A stretch of DNA of 64,000 nucleotides from Bythopirellula sp. (GTDB lineage: Bacteria > Planctomycetota > Planctomycetia > Pirellulales > Lacipirellulaceae), in assembly GCA_028285205.1 (NCBI GenBank), contig JANQQA010000338.1, forward strand, positions 1-64,000. Reading direction: 5' to 3'. Position 1 is the first letter of the stretch, and each line of letters begins with the position of its first letter. A program made the translations under genes and the position numbers. Shown here piece by piece: positions 23,922 to 34,348 of the stretch. The notes under the pieces are model-generated. The model saw nothing but the letters and a program-made list of their open reading frames with translations, was not told the origin of the DNA and did not search any database.

Positions 23922-26900
23922 GTGCATCTTGACCATCTCCCCGGCTCATTTTTTGGCCCCTCGAATCTCGTAGAGCTTCTCCAGCATCGCGCTCTGCACC
24001 AGGGAGATGACATTGGATTTCGCTTTCTCATGGACGGCGAGCGCGAAACGCTGGAGTGGAGCTACGCCGACCTGGACCGCAAGGCACGCGCGATCGCGGC
24101 GTCTTTGCAGTCGATGGATCTGGAAGGCGAGCGCGCACTGTTGCTTTATCCATCGGGGCTCGATTTTGTTGCGGCGTTTTTTGGCTGCTTGTACGCCGGG
24201 GTCACAGCGGTGCCCGCCTACCCGCCGCGGCGTAATCGCAATATGGCGCGAATCGATGCGATTGCCGGAGATGCAGAAGCGAAAATCGCGCTGACCACGT
24301 TCGATGTCCTCGAGCGCGTGCAGACGATGATCAGCGACACGCCCTCGCTGCAGCAAATACGCTGGCGTGCGACGGATCAGTGGGAAGAGGAGCTCGCCAC
24401 TAGCTGGCGACGCCCCGACGTGCACGGCGAGACGTTGGCCTTCTTGCAATACACCTCCGGCTCGACCGGTGCGCCCAAGGGCGTCATGCTGTCGCACGCC
24501 AACCTGATGCATAACTCGGCGATGATCTCCTACGCGTTCGGGCACACACGCTCAGGTAGCGGCTGTTTCTGGCTACCGCTGTATCACGACATGGGACTGA
24601 TTGGTGGCATTCTCCAGCCACTCTACATGGGTAAGCCGAACACGCTATTCTCACCCACGCACTTCTTGCAAAAACCAGTCCGCTGGCTGCAGATTCTGAC
24701 CCAATGCGGGGCGACGATTAGTGGTGGACCGAATTTCGCCTACGATCTGTGCGTCGAGAAAGTCACCGCCGAACAAAAAACCACGCTTGACCTGAGCCGC
24801 TGGACGCTCGCCTTCAATGGCGCCGAGCCCGTGCGTGCCGACACGATCGACCGATTTAGCAAAGCCTTCGCCGAGTGTGGGTTCCGTCGCGATGCGTTCT
24901 ACCCGTGCTACGGATTGGCCGAAGCGACGCTGATCGTCACGGGCGGCTTCAAGCAATCACCTCCGGCAGTGAAATCTTTCGAAATCCAGTCGCTGGAACG
25001 CAATGAAGTCGTCGAGACCGAACCCGGGGCTGACGACTCGCGCGAATTGGTCGGCAGCGGTGGAAACGTACTCGATCAACAAATCGTCATTGCTGATCCC
25101 GAAACACACGCCTCGCTAGGCAACAATCGCGTCGGCGAGATTTGGGTCTCCGGCCCAAGTGTCGCGGGCGGGTACTGGAAGCGTGACGATCTGAACCAGG
25201 AAACTTTCCAAGCTCGTCTCGACGATGGTCGGGGACCGTTTCTTCGCACCGGTGATTTGGGGTTCTTGCGGAACGGCGAGTTGTTCGTCACCGGTCGCTT
25301 GAAGGACCTGTTGATTTTCCGCGGTGTCAACCATTATCCGCAGGACATCGAGCATACGGCACAGTCCGCGCACGAGCACGTGGAACATTGCCAGGGCGCT
25401 GCGGTCATCGTCGGTGACGAAGGCAACGAACAACTTGTGCTCGTTCAAGAAACGGTGCGCCGTCGTGACCTCGACTTCCCAGCGATCATCGAAGCAATTC
25501 GCAGAAAGATTTCTGGCACGCACGAGTTGCCCGTCGCGGCGATCGTCTTAATCAAGACGCGCAGTATTCCGAAGACCTCCAGTGGCAAGATTCAACGTCA
25601 CGCATGTCGCGACGGATTCCTCGCGGGCACATTGGCGGCACAAGCGACCTGGTCGGCCGAGACTGGCAAGGTTGAGATCACGCCCTCATTGCGACGCCGC
25701 CGCAAGGACGACAGCGTCGAGCAATGGGTCGAGGAAGGTGACTTGCCGATCGCCGCACAGGACGAATCGACGACGGCAGTCGCGACCACGGTCGAAGAAG
25801 CGAAGCCCGAGGATCTCAACGGGGCAGCGGAACGCGCTGAACCGTCGGCCGCCGCCGCCGAGATCGCCGAAATCGTTTACGAACAGGTTCGCAACGTCGG
25901 GCGTGAGCGTGTCGGGGAACTTGATTGGGACACGAACATCGTCGAGCTGGGACTCGATTCGCTGGAACGCATCGAAATCGTGACCGCGTTGGAGGAGGCT
26001 TTCGGCGGCCGGTTCCCTGAATCGGTGATGCAAGAGATGGAAACGTGCGGTCAAGTTGTCGAGGCGATTCAAGAGCACCTCGGGGGCGAAGTCGCCAAAT
26101 CCAAATCCGCGCGACCGACGCATCTGATCGTCCCTGACGAGGATCACATCTTCACCAAGTCGCCCGAGTACTTACGTCTGCAGCAAAACCTGGAGATGAC
26201 CAAAAAGCCTGGCGCGACCAATCCGTACTTCACGGTCCACGAGAGCATAACCAACGATCTCACCACCATCGGTGGCCGCGAGTACATTAACTGGTGCAGC
26301 TACAACTATCTGGGCATGTCGGGTGATCCTGTGGTGATCGAAGCCGCCCGTCGCGCGGTCGCCAAGTATGGCACGAGCGTATCAGCCAGCCGCGTGGTCT
26401 CGGGTCAGAAACCGGTACATGTCCAACTAGAACGAGCGATCGCCGACTTCATCGGCACCGAAGACTCGATCGTGTTCGTCGGTGGTCACTCAACCAACGA
26501 GACCGTCATCGGCCACTTGTTCGGTGCAGGCGATTTGATCCTGCACGATGGGCTCTCGCACAACAGCATCCTGCAGGGTGCGATGCTCTCAGGGGCACGC
26601 CGGCGACCGTTCCGTCACAACGATTGGCAGGAGTGCGATCGCATCCTGCAAGAGGTTCGCCACGAGTACCGCCGTGTGCTGATCATTGCGGAAGGCGTCT
26701 ACAGCATGGACGGCGACTATTGCGAACTACCAAGGTTTGTTGACATCAAGCAACGACACAAAGCGTATCTGATGATCGATGAAGCTCATTCAATTGGCAC
26801 GATGGGCCGACGCGGGCGTGGGATGTCTGAGCACTATGAGGTCAACCCGCGTGACGTCGACATTTGGATGGGCACGTTGAGTAAGTCGTTTGGCAGCTGC

Positions 26901-27419
26901 GGTGGGTATATCGCGGGCTCATCAGCGCTGGTCGAATTTTTGAAATACACGGCACCTGGGTTCGTCTACAGCGTCGGCCTCAGCCCGCCCAACGCAGCCG
27001 CTGCACTCGCCTCTATCAACCTGCTGCTGGAAGAGCCCGACCGTGTTGCCCGCCTTGCAGAGAACTCTCGCCTGTTCCTACGCATCGCGAAGCGCGAGGG
27101 TCTCAATACGGGCACAAGCAACAACACCCCGGTGGTGCCCGTCATCACCGGCAACTCCGAGTACGCGCTTAAGCTATCGCAGGCACTATTCCAACGCGGA
27201 ATCAACGTACAGCCAATCCTCTACCCGGCGGTTGAAGAGAGCGCCGCCCGTCTGCGGTTCTTCATCACCAGCACCCACACCGAATCACAGATTCGCGAGA
27301 CCGTGGCGGCGGTGGCCGAATCACTCGAGCAGATCGATCCCACGTTCCAACGGACCACATCACCATCGGACATCGACTCAAGGATTTTTCCCCCTAATCC
27401 GGTGATGCCACCTAGTTAG
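23922..27419 (+). CDS. Fatty-acyl-AMP ligase / acyl carrier / alpha-oxoamine synthase fusion
   Basis: This is a 1165-residue three-domain protein. Residues about 20-600 form an adenylate-forming enzyme with LQYTSGSTGAPKGVMLSH (P-loop, about residue 175), GCFWLPLYHDMGLIGG and GRLKDLLIFRGVNHYPQDIE, typical of fatty-acyl-AMP ligases. Residues about 640-725 are an acyl carrier with the phosphopantetheine Ser in ELGLDSLERIE (S680). Residues about 755-1150 are an alpha-oxoamine synthase: GTSVSASRVVSGQ, AHSIGTMGRRGRG and the PLP lysine in MGTLSKSFG (K988). Predicted reaction: load a fatty acid onto the carrier and condense it with an amino acid, decarboxylating to a ketoamine, as serine palmitoyltransferase does. 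The amino acid and lipid product are unknown. Confidence 0.88.
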   Translation: MHLDHLPGSFFGPSNLVELLQHRALHQGDDIGFRFLMDGERETLEWSYADLDRKARAIAASLQSMDLEGERALLLYPSGLDFVAAFFGCLYAGVTAVPAYPPRRNRNMARIDAIAGDAEAKIALTTFDVLERVQTMISDTPSLQQIRWRATDQWEEELATSWRRPDVHGETLAFLQYTSGSTGAPKGVMLSHANLMHNSAMISYAFGHTRSGSGCFWLPLYHDMGLIGGILQPLYMGKPNTLFSPTHFLQKPVRWLQILTQCGATISGGPNFAYDLCVEKVTAEQKTTLDLSRWTLAFNGAEPVRADTIDRFSKAFAECGFRRDAFYPCYGLAEATLIVTGGFKQSPPAVKSFEIQSLERNEVVETEPGADDSRELVGSGGNVLDQQIVIADPETHASLGNNRVGEIWVSGPSVAGGYWKRDDLNQETFQARLDDGRGPFLRTGDLGFLRNGELFVTGRLKDLLIFRGVNHYPQDIEHTAQSAHEHVEHCQGAAVIVGDEGNEQLVLVQETVRRRDLDFPAIIEAIRRKISGTHELPVAAIVLIKTRSIPKTSSGKIQRHACRDGFLAGTLAAQATWSAETGKVEITPSLRRRRKDDSVEQWVEEGDLPIAAQDESTTAVATTVEEAKPEDLNGAAERAEPSAAAAEIAEIVYEQVRNVGRERVGELDWDTNIVELGLDSLERIEIVTALEEAFGGRFPESVMQEMETCGQVVEAIQEHLGGEVAKSKSARPTHLIVPDEDHIFTKSPEYLRLQQNLEMTKKPGATNPYFTVHESITNDLTTIGGREYINWCSYNYLGMSGDPVVIEAARRAVAKYGTSVSASRVVSGQKPVHVQLERAIADFIGTEDSIVFVGGHSTNETVIGHLFGAGDLILHDGLSHNSILQGAMLSGARRRPFRHNDWQECDRILQEVRHEYRRVLIIAEGVYSMDGDYCELPRFVDIKQRHKAYLMIDEAHSIGTMGRRGRGMSEHYEVNPRDVDIWMGTLSKSFGSCGGYIAGSSALVEFLKYTAPGFVYSVGLSPPNAAAALASINLLLEEPDRVARLAENSRLFLRIAKREGLNTGTSNNTPVVPVITGNSEYALKLSQALFQRGINVQPILYPAVEESAARLRFFITSTHTESQIRETVAAVAESLEQIDPTFQRTTSPSDIDSRIFPPNPVMPPS

Positions 27420-27549: not shown

Positions 27550-27578
27550 TTTACGCCACAGTGCACCACGACTAAAAT
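27550..27578 (+). promoter_or_regulatory. Candidate promoter for the WXG100/EssC-like locus
   Basis: TTTACG, a 17-bp spacer, then TAAAAT gives plausible -35 and -10 elements about 170 bp before the first gene at 27750. The rest of the gap 27420-27749 shows no gene. A guess from sequence only. Confidence 0.3.
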
Positions 27579-27749
27579 GTTACTCGTGGGGAGACTAGCG
27601 TCGATCGCCGCTCGGTGGGCTGCGATTCTGAATCAATCGCTTTGTACGCAAGCAGCTTGGAACGACTGCAACGTGGCGGAGCAGACACTCGCATATGTCC
27701 GTGGTGACAGGCCGCTTGCAGTGCGAATCAACAGAAGGTGAGGTCGCAG

Positions 27750-28022
27750 ATGTCTCAAGCGATCGTCGATCCGGCCGAATTGCGCCGCTTCGCGCAGCAG
27801 CTTGGCAACTTCAGCGTGGAGTTGGAAGAACGGCTTTCCACGCTCACCAGCCAACTGCACAATCTCAACAACACTTGGCGGGATCAAGAGCACATGAAGT
27901 TCGCCGAGGAGTTTCAGAATCACCTCAAGATGATTGCACGTACCGTTGAAACTTCCAACGAATACGTGCCGTTCTTGCTGCGCAAAGCCGAGCGGATTGA
28001 AGACTATTTGAATCAGAAGTGA
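27750..28022 (+). CDS. WXG100-family protein (Esx-like)
   Basis: This is a 90-residue, almost wholly helical protein. The size, the two helices and the loop LNNTWRDQEHMKFAEEFQ, with Trp at about residue 44 flanked by Asp, fit the WXG100 family of type VII substrates, which dimerise as helical hairpins. The WXG is replaced here by W-R-D, a known variation. The start at 27750 (MSQAIVDP) follows AGGTGAGG. It is the first gene of a five-gene run ending in the FtsK-type ATPase and a 79-residue protein. Confidence 0.8.
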   Translation: MSQAIVDPAELRRFAQQLGNFSVELEERLSTLTSQLHNLNNTWRDQEHMKFAEEFQNHLKMIARTVETSNEYVPFLLRKAERIEDYLNQK

Positions 28023-28087
28023 AGGAATCGAGAGGCGCGAGTCACGCGACCTAGGCAACCCAATAATCGCTACTCGCAACTGCATCC

Positions 28088-28636
28088 ATGTCCACGCCCG
28101 CACAAGTTCGCAATGTCGAAGCAATCGAGCACTTTCGCAATCAATTGGCGAAGTACGAGGAACGTGTCCAGTTGTCACTCGAGGCGATGACTTCGGAGCT
28201 ACAGCGGGCAACTGATTGGCTGCGCAACGATCGTCCCAGCTTTTGGAAGAAACAGACTAAGCTAGCGGAAGATGCTGTCCATGAGGCGAAGATGGCGTTG
28301 GAACGCTGCCTGATGTTTCCGACCGTCTCGGGGGAACGTCCCTCATGTCGCGAGGAGCGTACGGCGCTGAAGAAAGCCCAAGCACGGCTCGAGTACTGCC
28401 GAGAGAAAGTCGAAAAAGTACGTTACTGGAACCGTCAGATCCAGCACGAAATGTTGGAGTACACAGGCCGCATCGGCCAACTGAAGCGACTACTCGAAAC
28501 GGAATTACCTGCCGCGCGAGCGCGCCTCCAGCAAATCGTTCGTCGGCTGGACGAATACCAAATTGAACGGACGCCGCTTGCCCGCGAGCCCGAACCGGTC
28601 ACCCGTCCTGGCGAAGAACAAGACACCGAGCAATAA
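28088..28636 (+). CDS. Coiled-coil protein of the WXG100/EssC-like locus
   Basis: This is a 182-residue protein, charged and heptad-like through most of its length (IEHFRNQLAKYEERVQLSLEAM, RTALKKAQARLEYCREKVEKVRYW, QIVRRLDEYQIER), with a Pro/Glu-rich C-terminal tail. No signal peptide or membrane segment. No known family is recognised. Position between two small WXG100-like genes suggests a cytosolic chaperone or substrate-adaptor role, which is inference. It ends 2 bp before the next start codon, indicating translational coupling. Confidence 0.65.
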   Translation: MSTPAQVRNVEAIEHFRNQLAKYEERVQLSLEAMTSELQRATDWLRNDRPSFWKKQTKLAEDAVHEAKMALERCLMFPTVSGERPSCREERTALKKAQARLEYCREKVEKVRYWNRQIQHEMLEYTGRIGQLKRLLETELPAARARLQQIVRRLDEYQIERTPLAREPEPVTRPGEEQDTEQ

Positions 28637-28638
28637 CA

Positions 28639-28863
28639 ATGGCGAATTGGGATCTTTACACAAACGCGGCGCGCATTCGCAAAGCAACTGAAGAACTGCA
28701 GATCGCCTGGGAAGAGACCGCCGAATACTGGTCCGACGATGTGAGCCGCACGTTTTGCGAACGTCACCTCGAGCCTATCGGGCCAGCAACAAAGATATCG
28801 CTCGACGCGGTGGCTAGGATGCAGCATCTGATGAAACAAATCCAGCAAGATTGCGAAGAATAG
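28639..28863 (+). CDS. Small WXG100-like protein (74 residues)
   Basis: This is a 74-residue helical protein: MANWDLYTNAARIRKATEEL, then the turn AEYWSDDVSRTFCERHLEP, then a second helix rich in charge. The helix-turn(W-S-D)-helix design resembles half of a WXG100 hairpin, suggesting a second, shorter Esx-type partner. It begins 2 bp after the coiled-coil gene and ends 10 bp before the ATPase start. No family is confidently assigned. Confidence 0.65.
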   Translation: MANWDLYTNAARIRKATEELQIAWEETAEYWSDDVSRTFCERHLEPIGPATKISLDAVARMQHLMKQIQQDCEE

Positions 28864-28873
28864 GCGACCGACT

Positions 28874-31800
28874 TTGAAACACGTCACGCTCTCAACTCGC
28901 CGCCAACTCGAACTCATGCAGCAACTGCAGGAGCTGGCGAATCAGCGCGCCGAGGCTGAGTCGAATGTTGCCAACACACTGGCATCTGAGATGAAGGCGG
29001 CCGAGTCGAACTATCAGGGACGCACAGCGGCATTGACGACCGACTTCGGACTGCGTCGTCGCGAGCTAGAGAATCAGTTCGCCGAGGCGAAGCGGCAGGC
29101 CCGTGACGAGCATCAACAAAAGACCTCATCCTTGCAGCAGGGTTACAACGAAAAGGAGTCGCAAAGCCTCAAATCCTACAAACAGAGCGCTTTAGCAATC
29201 GAACGCAAAACAAAGGAAGCCGAATGGCAAGCGATGGCTGTGTTCGATGCGGCCAAGGACAAGCCGCAAGAAATGCTCGACTTGGCCGAGAAGCGACTGC
29301 TTACTCGTAAGCAGCAAATCGATGGCCTTCGCCGTGACGGCAACACGCTGATGTCGATGAGGCGTCTGAAAAAGAAGACTGAAACCGTCGAGCCGATGAT
29401 CGACGAAGAGGCGACGCCCGCGGCCGACCTCGCTCCCGAAGAGCGTCAGCAAGAAAACCTGACCACGCTTCGCCAGGCGGTCCTAGACTTGCAAGCTCAA
29501 CGTCTCCCGTCGGTGCTACTGGAAGGCATTCGCCCTTTCGGCTGGTGGCTGTTCGCCTGCGTAGTGCTGGCTGGTGCTGGTGGGACACTTGTCGAATGGT
29601 CGCCGCTCAACACATCCCTGATCGGACTGATTGGTGGCACGCTGCTGTCGGCGGTCGTTTACTTTTCCGCCGGCGGCAAAGCCAAGCAACAGTCGCTCGA
29701 TCAGTTCGCCCGGATTCTCGGCTTACTCAATCAAGCCGACGAGCTAGAAGTCTTAGCGCGAGACGATGCCCAGGAGAAAAGTCGAGCCGAGGCCGAACGC
29801 ATTCAGCAGAAAAAGACGGACGATCTCGCGGCGGCACAAGCCAAACGAGATCAGGCGACCGCCAAGAACGAAGCCCGTCGTAAAGCCGAAGCGGAACATC
29901 TGAAAAAGCTGCTCGACGACGGGACCGCTGCCGCAAACCAACTGCGCGATGAAGCGCTCGCGGCTGCCCAAGAAAAATATCCGCCGCTGCTCGACGAACT
30001 CGCCCGTGAGCGAGAGGCTGAGGCCGAAAAGAACTCTCAACATTACCAGCAGCGCAAGATTCACGCCCAATCGGTTCACGACGAGGCGTGGACGGAGTTG
30101 GCAGAGCGTTGGCAATCGGGCTTCACAGCCATCGCTGACGAACTAACCGGCATGCGGGAAATCTGTGACCAACTCTTCCCAGACTGGTCCACCACGGAGT
30201 GGAGCGATTGGCAGCGTCCCGGCGAACCACCGGAGGCGATCCAATTCGGCACCTGCAATGTGCCGCTCTCGATCGTGAAGAACGGACTGTCTGCAGACGA
30301 GCGACTACGTCCAGAACAGACGGAATTCGCTTTGCCGGCCCTGATGCCGTTCGACGAGTTGCCGCGTGTGGTCATCTCCGCCGAGGGTGAAGGACGCAAG
30401 GCCGCAGTGGATGTCCTTCAAGCGATGATGTTGCGCTTTCTCACGGCGATGCCAGCCGGCAAGCTCCGGTTTACGATCATCGATCCTTCGGCACTCGGCG
30501 AGAATTTCGCCGGCTTCATGCACTTGGCCGACCACGATGAACAACTCCTCGGCGGTCGGATTTGGACCGATTCGCGCCAGATCGAAGAGCGGCTCACGTT
30601 GCTTGCCGATCACATGGAAAAGGTGCTCCAAAAATACCTCAGAAATGAATTCGCCACGCTCCGTGAATACAACGAGCAAGCAGGCGAAGTCGCCGAGCCC
30701 TATCACGTACTCGTCCTGGCCAACTTCCCTACCGGCCTGAGCGACGCATCGATCCGCAGACTGGAAACGATCGCCACCGCCGGTCCCCGCTGCGGTGTGT
30801 TCACACTGCTGGGTATCGACACGGGTGTGAAAATGCCAGCGAAGCTCGACCTGGGGCCCTTGCTCAAAGACGCAGTTCATCTGGAGTGGATCGAGGATCG
30901 CTTGCAGTGGAACTATCCGCTCTACAAAAAACTGCCACTCGCGCTTGATCACGTGCCGCCATCGGATCGACTGATCGATTTGCTACGCGCCGCAGGGCAA
31001 GCGTCGCACGACGCGAGCCGCGTGGAGGTGCCGTTCGACGTGGTTGCGCCTCCAGCAGACGAACTGTGGTCGGGCAGCACAGCGCGCGAGCTGGTCGTCC
31101 CTGTCGGACGAGCCGGCGCAAAGGAACTACAGGCCCTGCGACTAGGCCGTGGTACGTCGCAGCACGCACTGATCTCCGGAAAGACTGGTTCCGGTAAGTC
31201 GACGCTGCTGCACGCGCTGATCACCAACACCGCGTTGCACTACAGCCCCGACGAGGTGGAATTCTACCTGGTCGACTTCAAGAAGGGTGTCGAATTCAAG
31301 GCGTACGCCACCGGTCAGCTGCCGCACGCGCGGGTGATCGCGATCGAGAGCGAACGTGAATTCGGCGTAAGCGTTCTGCAACGCCTCGATGAAGAACTGC
31401 GCCGTCGCGGCGAACGGTTCCGGGAACTCGGTGTGCAAGACCTGGCCGGAATCCGCGAAGCGTGCGATGACAAAATGCCGCGTGTGCTGCTGATCGTGGA
31501 CGAGTTCCAAGAGCTATTCGTCACTGACGACAAGCTATCCCAAGATGCGGCGCTGCTGCTGGACCGCCTCGTCCGTCAGGGCCGTGCCTTCGGAATTCAC
31601 GTATTGCTTGGTTCGCAGACCTTGGCAGGGGCGTACTCGCTGGCACGCAGCACGATCGGACAGATGGCCGTTCGCATCGCGTTGGAGTGTAGCGAAGCCG
31701 ACGCCCATTTGATCTTGAGCGACGAGAACTCGGCAGCCCGCTTGCTAAGTCGACCGGGCGAAGCGATTTACAACGACCAAAATGGCTTGGTCGAGGGCAA

Positions 31801-32791
31801 CAGCCCATTTCAGGTCGTCTGGCTTCCCGACCCGCGACGACAAGAGTACCTGCATCAGATTCGCGAGCAGCTTCCCGACGATGTTCCGGCACCTGAGCCA
31901 GCGATTGTCTTCGAAGGCAACGTCCCCGCCGACCCACGCGACAACGACGAGCTCACTGATTTAATTGCGCAGGGCGAACACGCTTCGCAAAGCGACTCCA
32001 AACTGTGGCTTGGCTCTGCTGTGCGGATCGAGCCGCCCACCAGCCTGACCTTCCGCCGGCAAAGCGGCAACAACTTGTTGGTCGTGGGGCAGGAGGAACC
32101 ACTCGCGCTGGGCATACTTGCGACCGCCGCTGTCACTTTCGCCGCTCAGCAAAGCGGCACGACCCCCAGCGTCACGGTGCTGGACGGCACGCGCCCTGAA
32201 TCGATGGAAGCCGGCTTCTGGGCGGAACTAGGCAGTTCACTGCCTGGCCGGATCGACATCCAAACTCCCGGCACGATCGACGCTTCGATCACTGCGTTGG
32301 CGGACGAGCTTGCCCGCCGTAGCGAAGCACCAGAGCTAACCCATCCGCCGCACTTCGTGATCATTCACGACCTGGCACAGTTCCGCAATTTGCGTCAGAC
32401 CGAAGAGGAGTTCAGCTTCTCAGCTAAGACCAGCGACAAGCCAGCGCCGTCCGACAAGCACTTCCGCAATCTGCTCAAGGAAGGTCCCGCTGTTGGCATG
32501 CATGTGCTGATTTGGTGTGATTCATACAACGGGCTGACGCGTTTCGTCGATCGGATGACACTGCGTGAAATCGACTACCGCGTGGCCATGCAAATGAGCG
32601 CTGCGGACTCGACCAGCCTGATCGACTCACCTGCTGCGGGTCGCATCGGCGAGCAGCGCGCCGTCTTCTATCGCGACGACTTGGGCACGCAAGTGAAGTT
32701 CCGCCCCTACGGCAAGCCCACCAACACTTGGGTCTCCTGGGCGTCAGACCAGCTGATGGACGAAAAAGTCGGCCTGAAGGCTTCGGAATAG
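28874..32791 (+). CDS. FtsK/SpoIIIE-type ATPase, EssC-like (type VII secretion)
   Basis: This is a 1305-residue protein from a TTG start. Residues 1-130 and about 270-410 are Gln/Glu/Ala-rich coiled coils. Two membrane segments (about residues 222-265: WWLFACVVLAGAGG and LIGLIGGTLLSAVVYF) lie between them. A degenerate ATPase-like part without Walker A follows (about 480-690). The active FtsK domain has GKTGSGKS at 769-776 and LLIVDEFQE with Asp876/Glu877. A third FtsK-like domain (about 1040-1290) has a broken P-loop (VVGQEEPLALG). One active and two degenerate modules resemble EssC/EccC motors. The N-terminal coiled coil replaces the usual FHA pair. Membrane-bound; substrates are probably the small helical proteins upstream. 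Confidence 0.85.
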   Translation: MKHVTLSTRRQLELMQQLQELANQRAEAESNVANTLASEMKAAESNYQGRTAALTTDFGLRRRELENQFAEAKRQARDEHQQKTSSLQQGYNEKESQSLKSYKQSALAIERKTKEAEWQAMAVFDAAKDKPQEMLDLAEKRLLTRKQQIDGLRRDGNTLMSMRRLKKKTETVEPMIDEEATPAADLAPEERQQENLTTLRQAVLDLQAQRLPSVLLEGIRPFGWWLFACVVLAGAGGTLVEWSPLNTSLIGLIGGTLLSAVVYFSAGGKAKQQSLDQFARILGLLNQADELEVLARDDAQEKSRAEAERIQQKKTDDLAAAQAKRDQATAKNEARRKAEAEHLKKLLDDGTAAANQLRDEALAAAQEKYPPLLDELAREREAEAEKNSQHYQQRKIHAQSVHDEAWTELAERWQSGFTAIADELTGMREICDQLFPDWSTTEWSDWQRPGEPPEAIQFGTCNVPLSIVKNGLSADERLRPEQTEFALPALMPFDELPRVVISAEGEGRKAAVDVLQAMMLRFLTAMPAGKLRFTIIDPSALGENFAGFMHLADHDEQLLGGRIWTDSRQIEERLTLLADHMEKVLQKYLRNEFATLREYNEQAGEVAEPYHVLVLANFPTGLSDASIRRLETIATAGPRCGVFTLLGIDTGVKMPAKLDLGPLLKDAVHLEWIEDRLQWNYPLYKKLPLALDHVPPSDRLIDLLRAAGQASHDASRVEVPFDVVAPPADELWSGSTARELVVPVGRAGAKELQALRLGRGTSQHALISGKTGSGKSTLLHALITNTALHYSPDEVEFYLVDFKKGVEFKAYATGQLPHARVIAIESEREFGVSVLQRLDEELRRRGERFRELGVQDLAGIREACDDKMPRVLLIVDEFQELFVTDDKLSQDAALLLDRLVRQGRAFGIHVLLGSQTLAGAYSLARSTIGQMAVRIALECSEADAHLILSDENSAARLLSRPGEAIYNDQNGLVEGNSPFQVVWLPDPRRQEYLHQIREQLPDDVPAPEPAIVFEGNVPADPRDNDELTDLIAQGEHASQSDSKLWLGSAVRIEPPTSLTFRRQSGNNLLVVGQEEPLALGILATAAVTFAAQQSGTTPSVTVLDGTRPESMEAGFWAELGSSLPGRIDIQTPGTIDASITALADELARRSEAPELTHPPHFVIIHDLAQFRNLRQTEEEFSFSAKTSDKPAPSDKHFRNLLKEGPAVGMHVLIWCDSYNGLTRFVDRMTLREIDYRVAMQMSAADSTSLIDSPAAGRIGEQRAVFYRDDLGTQVKFRPYGKPTNTWVSWASDQLMDEKVGLKASE

Positions 32792-32861
32792 CGTATCTCT
32801 CTTCACTCAAGAGTGCTCCACAGGTACATGAACCGAGTCATCCCGTGTAAGGAATAATCTC

Positions 32862-33101
32862 ATGGCTTATCAAGGATTCGATTCCAGCGACGAAGAATCG
32901 TTTGAGAAGATGCGTGATTTTTTCAGCCCGGCGCAAGTGGATACTTCCGTTCGTCAAGCTCTGCACATGTGCTGGATGATGCTGCCGAACGACAAGAAAA
33001 ACGCCGATGAATTGGAGCTGCAGTTCCGCCGCATCGTTGATCGGGCGTTAGAAGACATGCGTGAAGACGAGCAAGCTTTTGGCTGGTCCCAGAAGTCTTG
33101 A
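32862..33101 (+). CDS. Small acidic protein downstream of the EssC-like ATPase
   Basis: This is a 79-residue acidic helical protein (MAYQGFDSSDEESFEKMRDFF..., ALHMCWMMLPNDKKNADELE). No signal peptide or membrane segment. AAGGA lies 8 bases upstream of the ATG. It is 70 bp behind the ATPase on the same strand, so probably part of the same unit. Family unknown; it could be an adaptor or unrelated. Confidence 0.6.
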   Translation: MAYQGFDSSDEESFEKMRDFFSPAQVDTSVRQALHMCWMMLPNDKKNADELELQFRRIVDRALEDMREDEQAFGWSQKS

Positions 33102-33334: not shown

Positions 33335-34348
33335 ATGCGTCCACTTTTGGTTCCGCTCGAAGCCCTAGTGTACGGCCCGTCGTACGCCTATCTGAATTAC
33401 AAGATCCGTTCCCCCACTCCACTCGATCACGATACCGTGTGGCGGGATCTAACTTTCGACCTGCCACCGCTGGCAGACTGGTTGCGCAACAGTTGGCCGA
33501 TTGGGCCAGTACGTCCCCTGCTGCTACGAGCTAAGATCAAGCAGGATCACGTACTGGGAATCGCCGATCACTATGACGTGTCGAATGACTTCTATGAACT
33601 GTTCCTCGACAGGCGGTACATGTTCTACACCTGTGCCGACTTTCATCACCCCGACGAAACCATCGAGGAGGCGCAGCAGCACAAGGCGGACCACATCCTG
33701 GGGCTGATTGATCCCAAGCCGGGGCAGCGAATCCTAGAACTCGGCTGCGGCTGGGGCGCGATGCTCAAGCGGATTTGTGAACACACTGGCGACAAAGACA
33801 ACCTTCACGGTTTGACTTTGTCCAAGGAGCAAGTCGACTACAACAACCAACATAACGGCTTTCATGTCGAGTTCGACAACTTCATCACGCGCACATATCA
33901 GCCGGAATCCTACGATACGATCTACTCGATCGGCGCCTGGGAGCATGTTCGTCCGGATGAAATCGCGCCCTTGTGCAACAAGTTGTACGACGCGATTAAA
34001 CCTGGGGGCAAGCTCGTCAAGCATTTCTTCTGTCGATCGACCGACGACTTGTTCGCTACGGCGGTCTGCTCGCAGCTGTACTTTCCCGGCTCGATCGGCT
34101 CCTCTTATCGCGCGCATGTCGAAGCCTTCGAAGGAGCCGGCTTCCGGATCACACATCGCTCGATCCACGACTACCGCCCTACCTTGCGCGCCTGGTTCGA
34201 TCGACTGGTCGAAAGCCGCGAGCGAGCGCTCGAGTTGGTTGACGTGCGCACGTACAACCGCCAACTCACGTTCTTTCCGGCCTCGTGGCGCTATTTCCAC
34301 GAGGGACGCGGCATGCTCGTCCGCTGGGTGATGGAGAAGCAGGGATGA
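33335..34348 (+). CDS. Cyclopropane-fatty-acid-synthase-like methyltransferase
   Basis: This is a 337-residue SAM-dependent methyltransferase. ADHYDVSNDFYELFLD and FYTCADFHHPDETIEEAQ are signatures of the CFA-synthase/mycolic acid cyclopropanase family; ILELGCGWGAMLKRI binds SAM; YDTIYSIGAWEHVRP carries the catalytic-region acidic residue. It modifies unsaturated acyl chains of phospholipids or related lipids in the membrane. N-terminal CFA recognition domain is partly present. It follows the WXG100/EssC-like locus on the same strand, about 230 bp downstream, and may have its own promoter. Confidence 0.88.
   Translation: MRPLLVPLEALVYGPSYAYLNYKIRSPTPLDHDTVWRDLTFDLPPLADWLRNSWPIGPVRPLLLRAKIKQDHVLGIADHYDVSNDFYELFLDRRYMFYTCADFHHPDETIEEAQQHKADHILGLIDPKPGQRILELGCGWGAMLKRICEHTGDKDNLHGLTLSKEQVDYNNQHNGFHVEFDNFITRTYQPESYDTIYSIGAWEHVRPDEIAPLCNKLYDAIKPGGKLVKHFFCRSTDDLFATAVCSQLYFPGSIGSSYRAHVEAFEGAGFRITHRSIHDYRPTLRAWFDRLVESRERALELVDVRTYNRQLTFFPASWRYFHEGRGMLVRWVMEKQG

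What the first reader, a model, noticed from the sequence alone, without database searches (positions are those of the whole stretch)
27550..33101. Compact WXG100/EssC-like locus in a planctomycete-type genome
Seen: five same-strand genes, namely a 90-residue WXG100 protein (TWRDQ turn), a coiled-coil protein, a 74-residue W-S-D hairpin-like protein, a 1305-residue FtsK-type ATPase with one intact and two degenerate ATPase modules plus two membrane segments, and a 79-residue acidic protein. The first four are 2-66 bp apart. Known: EssC/EccC motors drive type VII secretion of WXG100 dimers in Gram-positive bacteria. Here there is no EccB, EccD, EsaA or EsaB homologue, and lpxB elsewhere in the window implies an outer membrane. 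Inference: a minimal secretion or assembly system that must be completed by unknown envelope parts.
Basis: partly seen in the sequence, partly recalled or inferred. Interest (0 to 1): 0.78.

Follow-up and report, generated by a model that had tools for sequence, protein, structure and literature searches.

The report
Membrane-anchored T7SS-like module in Planctomycetota
Four genes (a membrane-anchored pump-like ATPase and three small helical-hairpin proteins) form a single-copy unit kept together in about one in seven planctomycete genomes; [quoted passage not shown]

Summary
The observation largely holds. A WXG100 protein (Pfam E=1.9e-8, over cut-off), a coiled-coil protein, a 74-aa hairpin and a 1305-aa FtsK-type ATPase lie in tandem; the 79-aa fifth gene is not part of the set (0 of 115 loci). 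The four components co-occur almost perfectly in 294 Planctomycetota genomes (ATPase 40, WXG100 38, coiled coil 39, 74-aa 40; all four in 36), even in eight genomes where the genes lie in 2-4 separate places. The ATPase tree follows genome families, which argues for vertical inheritance. The ATPase has three modules, only the middle one with a P-loop (59/59), matches EccC/EssC over its whole length, and carries a TM pair. The 74-aa protein is a second WXG100-like hairpin; the coiled-coil protein is a long hairpin related to N-terminal parts of longer proteins in plasmid relatives. A Helicobacter plasmid relative has a WHH nuclease plus SUKH immunity gene at that position. The kind was noted before (Zhang 2012 names planctomycetes; CoCoNuTs 2024; H. 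pylori HP0062/HP0066). New here: the membrane-anchored, toxin-free, apparently vertical planctomycete variant. Protein export across the inner membrane is the best reading; no transport has been shown and the outer-membrane step is unknown.

The parts
27750..28022 (+). WXG100 protein, 90 aa (ATG start fits relatives' MAQAIVDPEEL; a GTG start at 27738 is also open); turn motif W-R-D
   Evidence: PF06013 1.9e-8 over cut-off; nearest solved structure H. pylori HP0062 3fx7 2e-6; about 37-54% identical in planctomycete loci
28088..28636 (+). coiled-coil protein, 182 aa: long helical hairpin (H10-76, H88-160)
   Evidence: AlphaFold2 pLDDT 91; same family in 39/294 genomes, single copy; homologous to N-terminal regions of longer proteins in Rhodococcus/Deinococcus/Caballeronia systems
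28639..28863 (+). 74-aa second WXG100-like hairpin with invariant W-x-D
   Evidence: W31 and D33 invariant in 40 sequences; profile match to the WXG100 set P=3e-6, 40 shuffles best 0.024; 10/40 members hit PF06013 weakly
28874..32791 (+). [quoted passage not shown]
29510..29677 (+). TM pair of the ATPase (about residues 213-268)
   Evidence: hydropathy in the window and in 97 of 99 distinct sequences; a separate 119-aa two-TM ORF beside the ATPase in L049
31178..31204 (+). Walker A GKTGSGKST (residues 769-777) of the middle module
   Evidence: 59/59 sequences match GxxxxGK[ST]
32862..33101 (+). 79-aa acidic ORF: NOT part of the module
   Evidence: 0 of 115 loci

Best explanation
A four-component type VII-like export module adapted to a diderm. 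The ATPase sits in the inner membrane through its TM pair, is presumed to hexamerise, and uses only its middle ATPase module as motor. The WXG100 protein, the 74-aa WXG100-like hairpin and the long coiled-coil hairpin act as a pre-secretion complex, or themselves as the exported product, in the way that an LXG domain with its two small Lap hairpins does in T7SSb. In plasmid-borne relatives the coiled-coil slot can carry a C-terminal toxin with a neighbouring immunity gene, whereas in Planctomycetota no toxin part is recognised. Shown here: gene set, architecture, co-occurrence, homologies. Inferred: hexamer, complex formation, export, direction. Unknown: substrate fate and outer-membrane passage.
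For: Co-occurrence of four families over 294 genomes, pairwise Fisher p from 2.6e-42 to 6e-48, one copy each in nearly all, also where the genes are dispersed over 2-4 places. Whole-model match to EccC (4nh0, Foldseek E=1.5e-32; VIA Z 28 over 741 residues, rmsd 15), while FtsK matches only the middle module. NCBIfam EccCa 110 bits against FtsK 26 bits. TM segment(s) in 97 of 99 sequences. Two WXG100-like hairpins plus a long hairpin. A Helicobacter plasmid relative has WXG100, then a coiled coil with a WHH nuclease (PF14414 1.1e-11), then SUKH immunity (PF09346 1.6e-6), a 77-aa protein and the ATPase. Coiled-coil homology P=1.6e-7 and 7.6e-5 against best 0.062 in 60 shuffles. LXG-Lap1-Lap2 precedent: PMC9600955.
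Against: No transport data. No toxin or immunity gene was recognised at the planctomycete loci examined (flanking ORFs were not surveyed systematically). The canonical YxxxD/E export motif is absent (0/74 WXG100, 1/74 74-aa, 3/74 coiled coil). YukD and YukC were not found. The Helicobacter coiled coil itself did not match the planctomycete one (P=0.23). High conservation and single copy fit a structural or housekeeping role as well as secretion.
Confidence: 0.62

Rival explanations
1. An intracellular defence or stress-response module of the TerY-P/CoCoNuT type, in which the EssC-like ATPase and WXG100 proteins act inside the cell against phage or damage rather than export protein.
For: Plasmid relatives sit with VWA, PP2C, kinase and CARF genes (Caballeronia) or TerD (Rhodococcus); published CoCoNuT and H. 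pylori TerY-P islands carry the same kind of unit; the middle module also hits PADLOC SspH and mad8 profiles.
Against: No widely conserved neighbours besides the four genes in planctomycetes; the planctomycete ATPase is membrane-anchored, unlike the published CoCoNuT ones; its tree follows genome families, while defence islands are usually mobile.
Confidence: 0.17
2. An envelope structural or cell-biology machine: the ATPase assembles the hairpins into a membrane or periplasmic structure, with nothing released.
For: Single copy, WXG100 well conserved across the phylum, vertical pattern, no cargo recognised.
Against: Of the relatives outside the phylum, the one with a recognisable cargo carries a toxin and an immunity gene. 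Absence from about 86% of sampled genomes argues against a core role.
Confidence: 0.14
3. A DNA translocase of the FtsK type with accidental small neighbours.
For: The middle module has the FtsK motor fold (VIA Z 30.4, rmsd 2.7, 278 residues).
Against: The genome has a separate FtsK (C50); FtsK profile 26 bits against EccCa 110; four-gene co-occurrence even when unlinked.
Confidence: 0.04

Closest known systems
'Mobile versions of T7SS' with solo WXG and a YueA-like ATPase, only the middle of three domains active (Zhang et al. 2012, PMC3482391, Table 1 footnote 6; names planctomycetes)
   Same: solo WXG100; three FtsK/HerA modules with only the middle one active; same phylum
   Different: The footnote gives no gene set. 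Here: four conserved components, a TM pair, a pattern of vertical inheritance and dispersed genes in eight genomes, so in this phylum it does not look mobile
EssC-like unit of extended type III-A CoCoNuTs (PMC11090510)
   Same: central-only active ATPase, N-terminal coiled coil, two WXG100 proteins (one without the motif), a coiled-coil protein
   Different: [quoted passage not shown] the window's ATPase has a TM pair and its coiled coil no nuclease
H. pylori HP0062/HP0066 (PMC4978471, PMC3397514; 3fx7)
   Same: nearest solved WXG100 relative (2e-6), W-R-D turn, FtsK-type gene in the cluster, diderm host
   Different: HP0066 was not compared by sequence here; a related Helicobacter plasmid system has no TM pair and carries a WHH nuclease with SUKH
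T7SSb EssC with LXG-Lap1-Lap2 substrates (PMC9600955) and T7SSa EccC
   Same: TM pair before tandem ATPase modules; two small hairpins plus a long helical protein
   Different: no YukD or YukC found, no FHA hit, only one active module, no YxxxD/E motif, no LXG toxin

Membership tests
WXG100 superfamily (PF06013), for the 90-aa protein | curated profile score over cut-off | tested here: met
   34.9 bits against 27.3
WXG100 superfamily (PF06013), for the 90-aa protein | W-x-G in the turn | tested here: not met
   W-x-D in practically all 74 relatives (WRD 60, WQD 13); HP0062, counted as a relative of the family, also has WRD (PMC3397514). Membership is therefore filed by profile score only
WXG100 superfamily, for the 74-aa protein | curated profile score over cut-off | tested here: not met
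   no hit for the window protein; 10/40 relatives hit weakly, best 2.5e-4. Profile-profile match to the 90-aa set P=3e-6; so 'WXG100-like', not a filed member
EccC/EssC (T7SS motor) | tandem FtsK-type ATPase modules, whole-architecture similarity | tested here: met
   Foldseek 4nh0 1.5e-32; VIA Z 28 over 741 residues
EccC/EssC (T7SS motor) | NCBIfam equivalog score over cut-off (TIGR03924, TIGR03928, TIGR03925) | tested here: not met
   110, 89 and 87 bits against 509, 778 and 347
EccC/EssC (T7SS motor) | N-terminal TM pair | tested here: met
   97 of 99 distinct sequences with at least one segment, 81 with two or more
T7SSb | YukD (EsaB) and YukC (EssB) | tested here: not met
   no match in the genome (93% complete); B. 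subtilis control rings
T7SSa | EccB | tested here: inconclusive
   no match, but no control genome rang
T7SSa / T7SSb | EccD, EsaA | not tested
   not searched for
T7SS substrates | C-terminal YxxxD/E motif | tested here: not met
   0/74, 1/74, 3/74 in the last 35 residues
T7SS | ATPase-dependent export of WXG100 proteins | not testable with these tools
   needs experiment
Solo-WXG / middle-active-ATPase systems (Zhang 2012; CoCoNuT extension) | three modules, only the middle active, with WXG100 | tested here: met
   P-loop 0/59, 59/59, 0/59; WXG100 in 37 of 40 ATPase-bearing genomes
LXG domain | Pfam LXG hit for the coiled-coil protein | tested here: not met
   no LXG family in the Pfam scan up to E=1

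The most novel reading that the evidence does not exclude
A vertically inherited, toxin-free, membrane-anchored type VII-like exporter that is native to an outer-membrane phylum and delivers a hairpin protein complex to the periplasm or surface for a housekeeping purpose, i.e. a diderm T7SS that is not a weapon.
Probability: 0.3. Interest if true: 0.8.

Novelty: new variant of a known kind. Interest (0 to 1): 0.56.

Why it matters
Type VII secretion is usually described as a system of Actinomycetota and Bacillota. A four-gene unit that co-occurs almost perfectly across Planctomycetota, even when its genes are scattered over the chromosome, gives a small set with which to ask what the minimal T7SS is, and how it could work in a cell with an outer membrane. 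It also gives the two WXG100-like hairpins and the coiled-coil protein a predicted common function.

Tried and rejected
79-aa gene as a member: rejected (0/115). FtsK DNA translocase: rejected. Fold search with the coiled-coil model: only generic long-helix matches, no Foldseek hit at E<=0.001, so no family assigned by fold. Which EccC modules the three correspond to (D1-D2-D3 or DUF-D1-D2) stays open: the whole-model alignment suggests the former, the best sequence hit is to the EccCa profile. The first merged HMM search drifted between the small proteins, so separate profiles with shuffled controls were used. The idea that loci without WXG100 had lost it: rejected, it lies elsewhere in the same genome. 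EccB absence: left inconclusive.

Full report
Observation. The first protein passes the Pfam WXG100 cut-off (1.9e-8), the fourth is FtsK/SpoIIIE (3.3e-31), and the 182-, 74- and 79-aa proteins have no hit over a curated cut-off. The genome holds one WXG100 over cut-off and two FtsK-type proteins, the other being the FtsK on contig 50. LpxB lies in the window and an Omp85 protein elsewhere in the genome.

Conservation. A search of 294 Planctomycetota genomes found the ATPase in 40. The fetched loci, 35 from these genomes and 80 from named genome records, nearly all labelled Planctomycetota, show the order WXG100, coiled coil, 74-aa, ATPase, complete in 69 of 86 loci with at least 2 kb upstream. 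Closest are MAGs of Pirellulales and Planctomycetota at up to 62% identity in the best segment. Other neighbours are shared only among a few loci, and the 79-aa gene is in none of the 115 loci.

Co-occurrence. The same 294 genomes were searched with WXG100, the coiled-coil and the 74-aa profiles: 38, 39 and 40 genomes, 36 with all four, 41 with any. Most exceptions are incomplete genomes or Pfam misses: G144 has its WXG100 by the local profile. G107 has no coiled coil or 74-aa gene. In eight genomes the components are dispersed; in the single-contig genomes G024 and G105 they lie in three and four places. Linkage therefore cannot explain the pattern, and the four proteins very probably work together. 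The ATPase tree places the genome families f4, f13, f68 and f71 as clades, which fits vertical descent with many losses better than a mobile element; sampling is limited.

Motor. The AlphaFold2 model of residues 430-1300 (pLDDT 85) matches the EccC cytoplasmic domain over its whole length, and FtsK motors over the middle module only. P-loops: 0/59, 59/59, 0/59. A TM pair precedes the modules (at least one hydrophobic segment in 97 of 99 distinct sequences, the window counted once). In L049 it is a separate 119-aa ORF between WXG100 and ATPase. The five relatives outside the phylum show no TM pair in the ATPase; two have a small adjacent protein with one C-terminal segment.

Small proteins. The WXG100 is nearest to H. 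pylori HP0062 among solved structures. The 74-aa family has invariant W and D at the turn and matches the WXG100 set (P=3e-6, shuffles best 0.024). The coiled-coil protein is a long two-helix hairpin. It is homologous to N-terminal regions of 314-, 326- and 436-aa proteins in Rhodococcus, Deinococcus and Caballeronia (P=1.6e-7, 7.6e-5, 1.8e-3; 60 shuffles best 0.062). The Caballeronia and Rhodococcus proteins have C-terminal extensions that look like enzymes by eye, but no Pfam hit. In the Helicobacter plasmid the same position holds a WHH nuclease followed by a SUKH immunity protein, although its coiled coil does not match by profile. In three Phycisphaerae loci the coiled coil is fused to an Imm33-like domain (1.4e-14 to 6.1e-8).

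Prior knowledge. Zhang et al. 2012 (PMC3482391) noted solo WXG with a middle-active ATPase in planctomycetes and other phyla and called them mobile T7SS. The CoCoNuT paper (PMC11090510) describes the same parts without TM helices. PMC4978471 calls the WxG and FtsK genes a minimal T7SS set, with paralogues HP0062 and HP0066. The finding is thus a variant of a known but, as far as I found, untested kind. Two literature searches for WXG and planctomycetes gave nothing more specific, within an open-access library only.

Mechanism. Most likely an inner-membrane ATPase that exports, or loads, a complex of three hairpins, by analogy with LXG-Lap1-Lap2 (PMC9600955). Architecture and co-occurrence are shown; complex, transport, direction and outer-membrane passage are inference. 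The missing YxxxD/E motif and the lack of YukD/YukC mean it should not be filed as T7SSb, and T7SSa membership is untested beyond an inconclusive EccB search.

Noticed in passing
L091:4572-5633, L125:4505-5575, L136:4716-5696: Phycisphaerae coiled-coil proteins fused to an Imm33-like domain (PF24719).
   Followed up: partly
L049:8340-8699: Separate 119-aa two-TM ORF between WXG100 and a 1006-aa ATPase; genome G107 lacks the coiled coil and the 74-aa gene.
   Followed up: partly
L078:2565-4451 and L077:4475-6007: Hsp70-like genes beside the ATPase in Helicobacter and Rhodococcus plasmids (annotated in L077; by eye in L078, no Pfam hit).
   Followed up: no
H21, MT836827.1 (phage collection): Unannotated 10-kb faecal phage record with a 30% identical ATPase over 69% of the query.
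   Followed up: no
window 23922-27419: Fusion of AMP-binding enzyme, carrier domain and class I/II aminotransferase upstream of the module.
   Followed up: partly
window 33335-34348: CMAS-type (cyclopropane synthetase) methyltransferase downstream of the module.
   Followed up: partly
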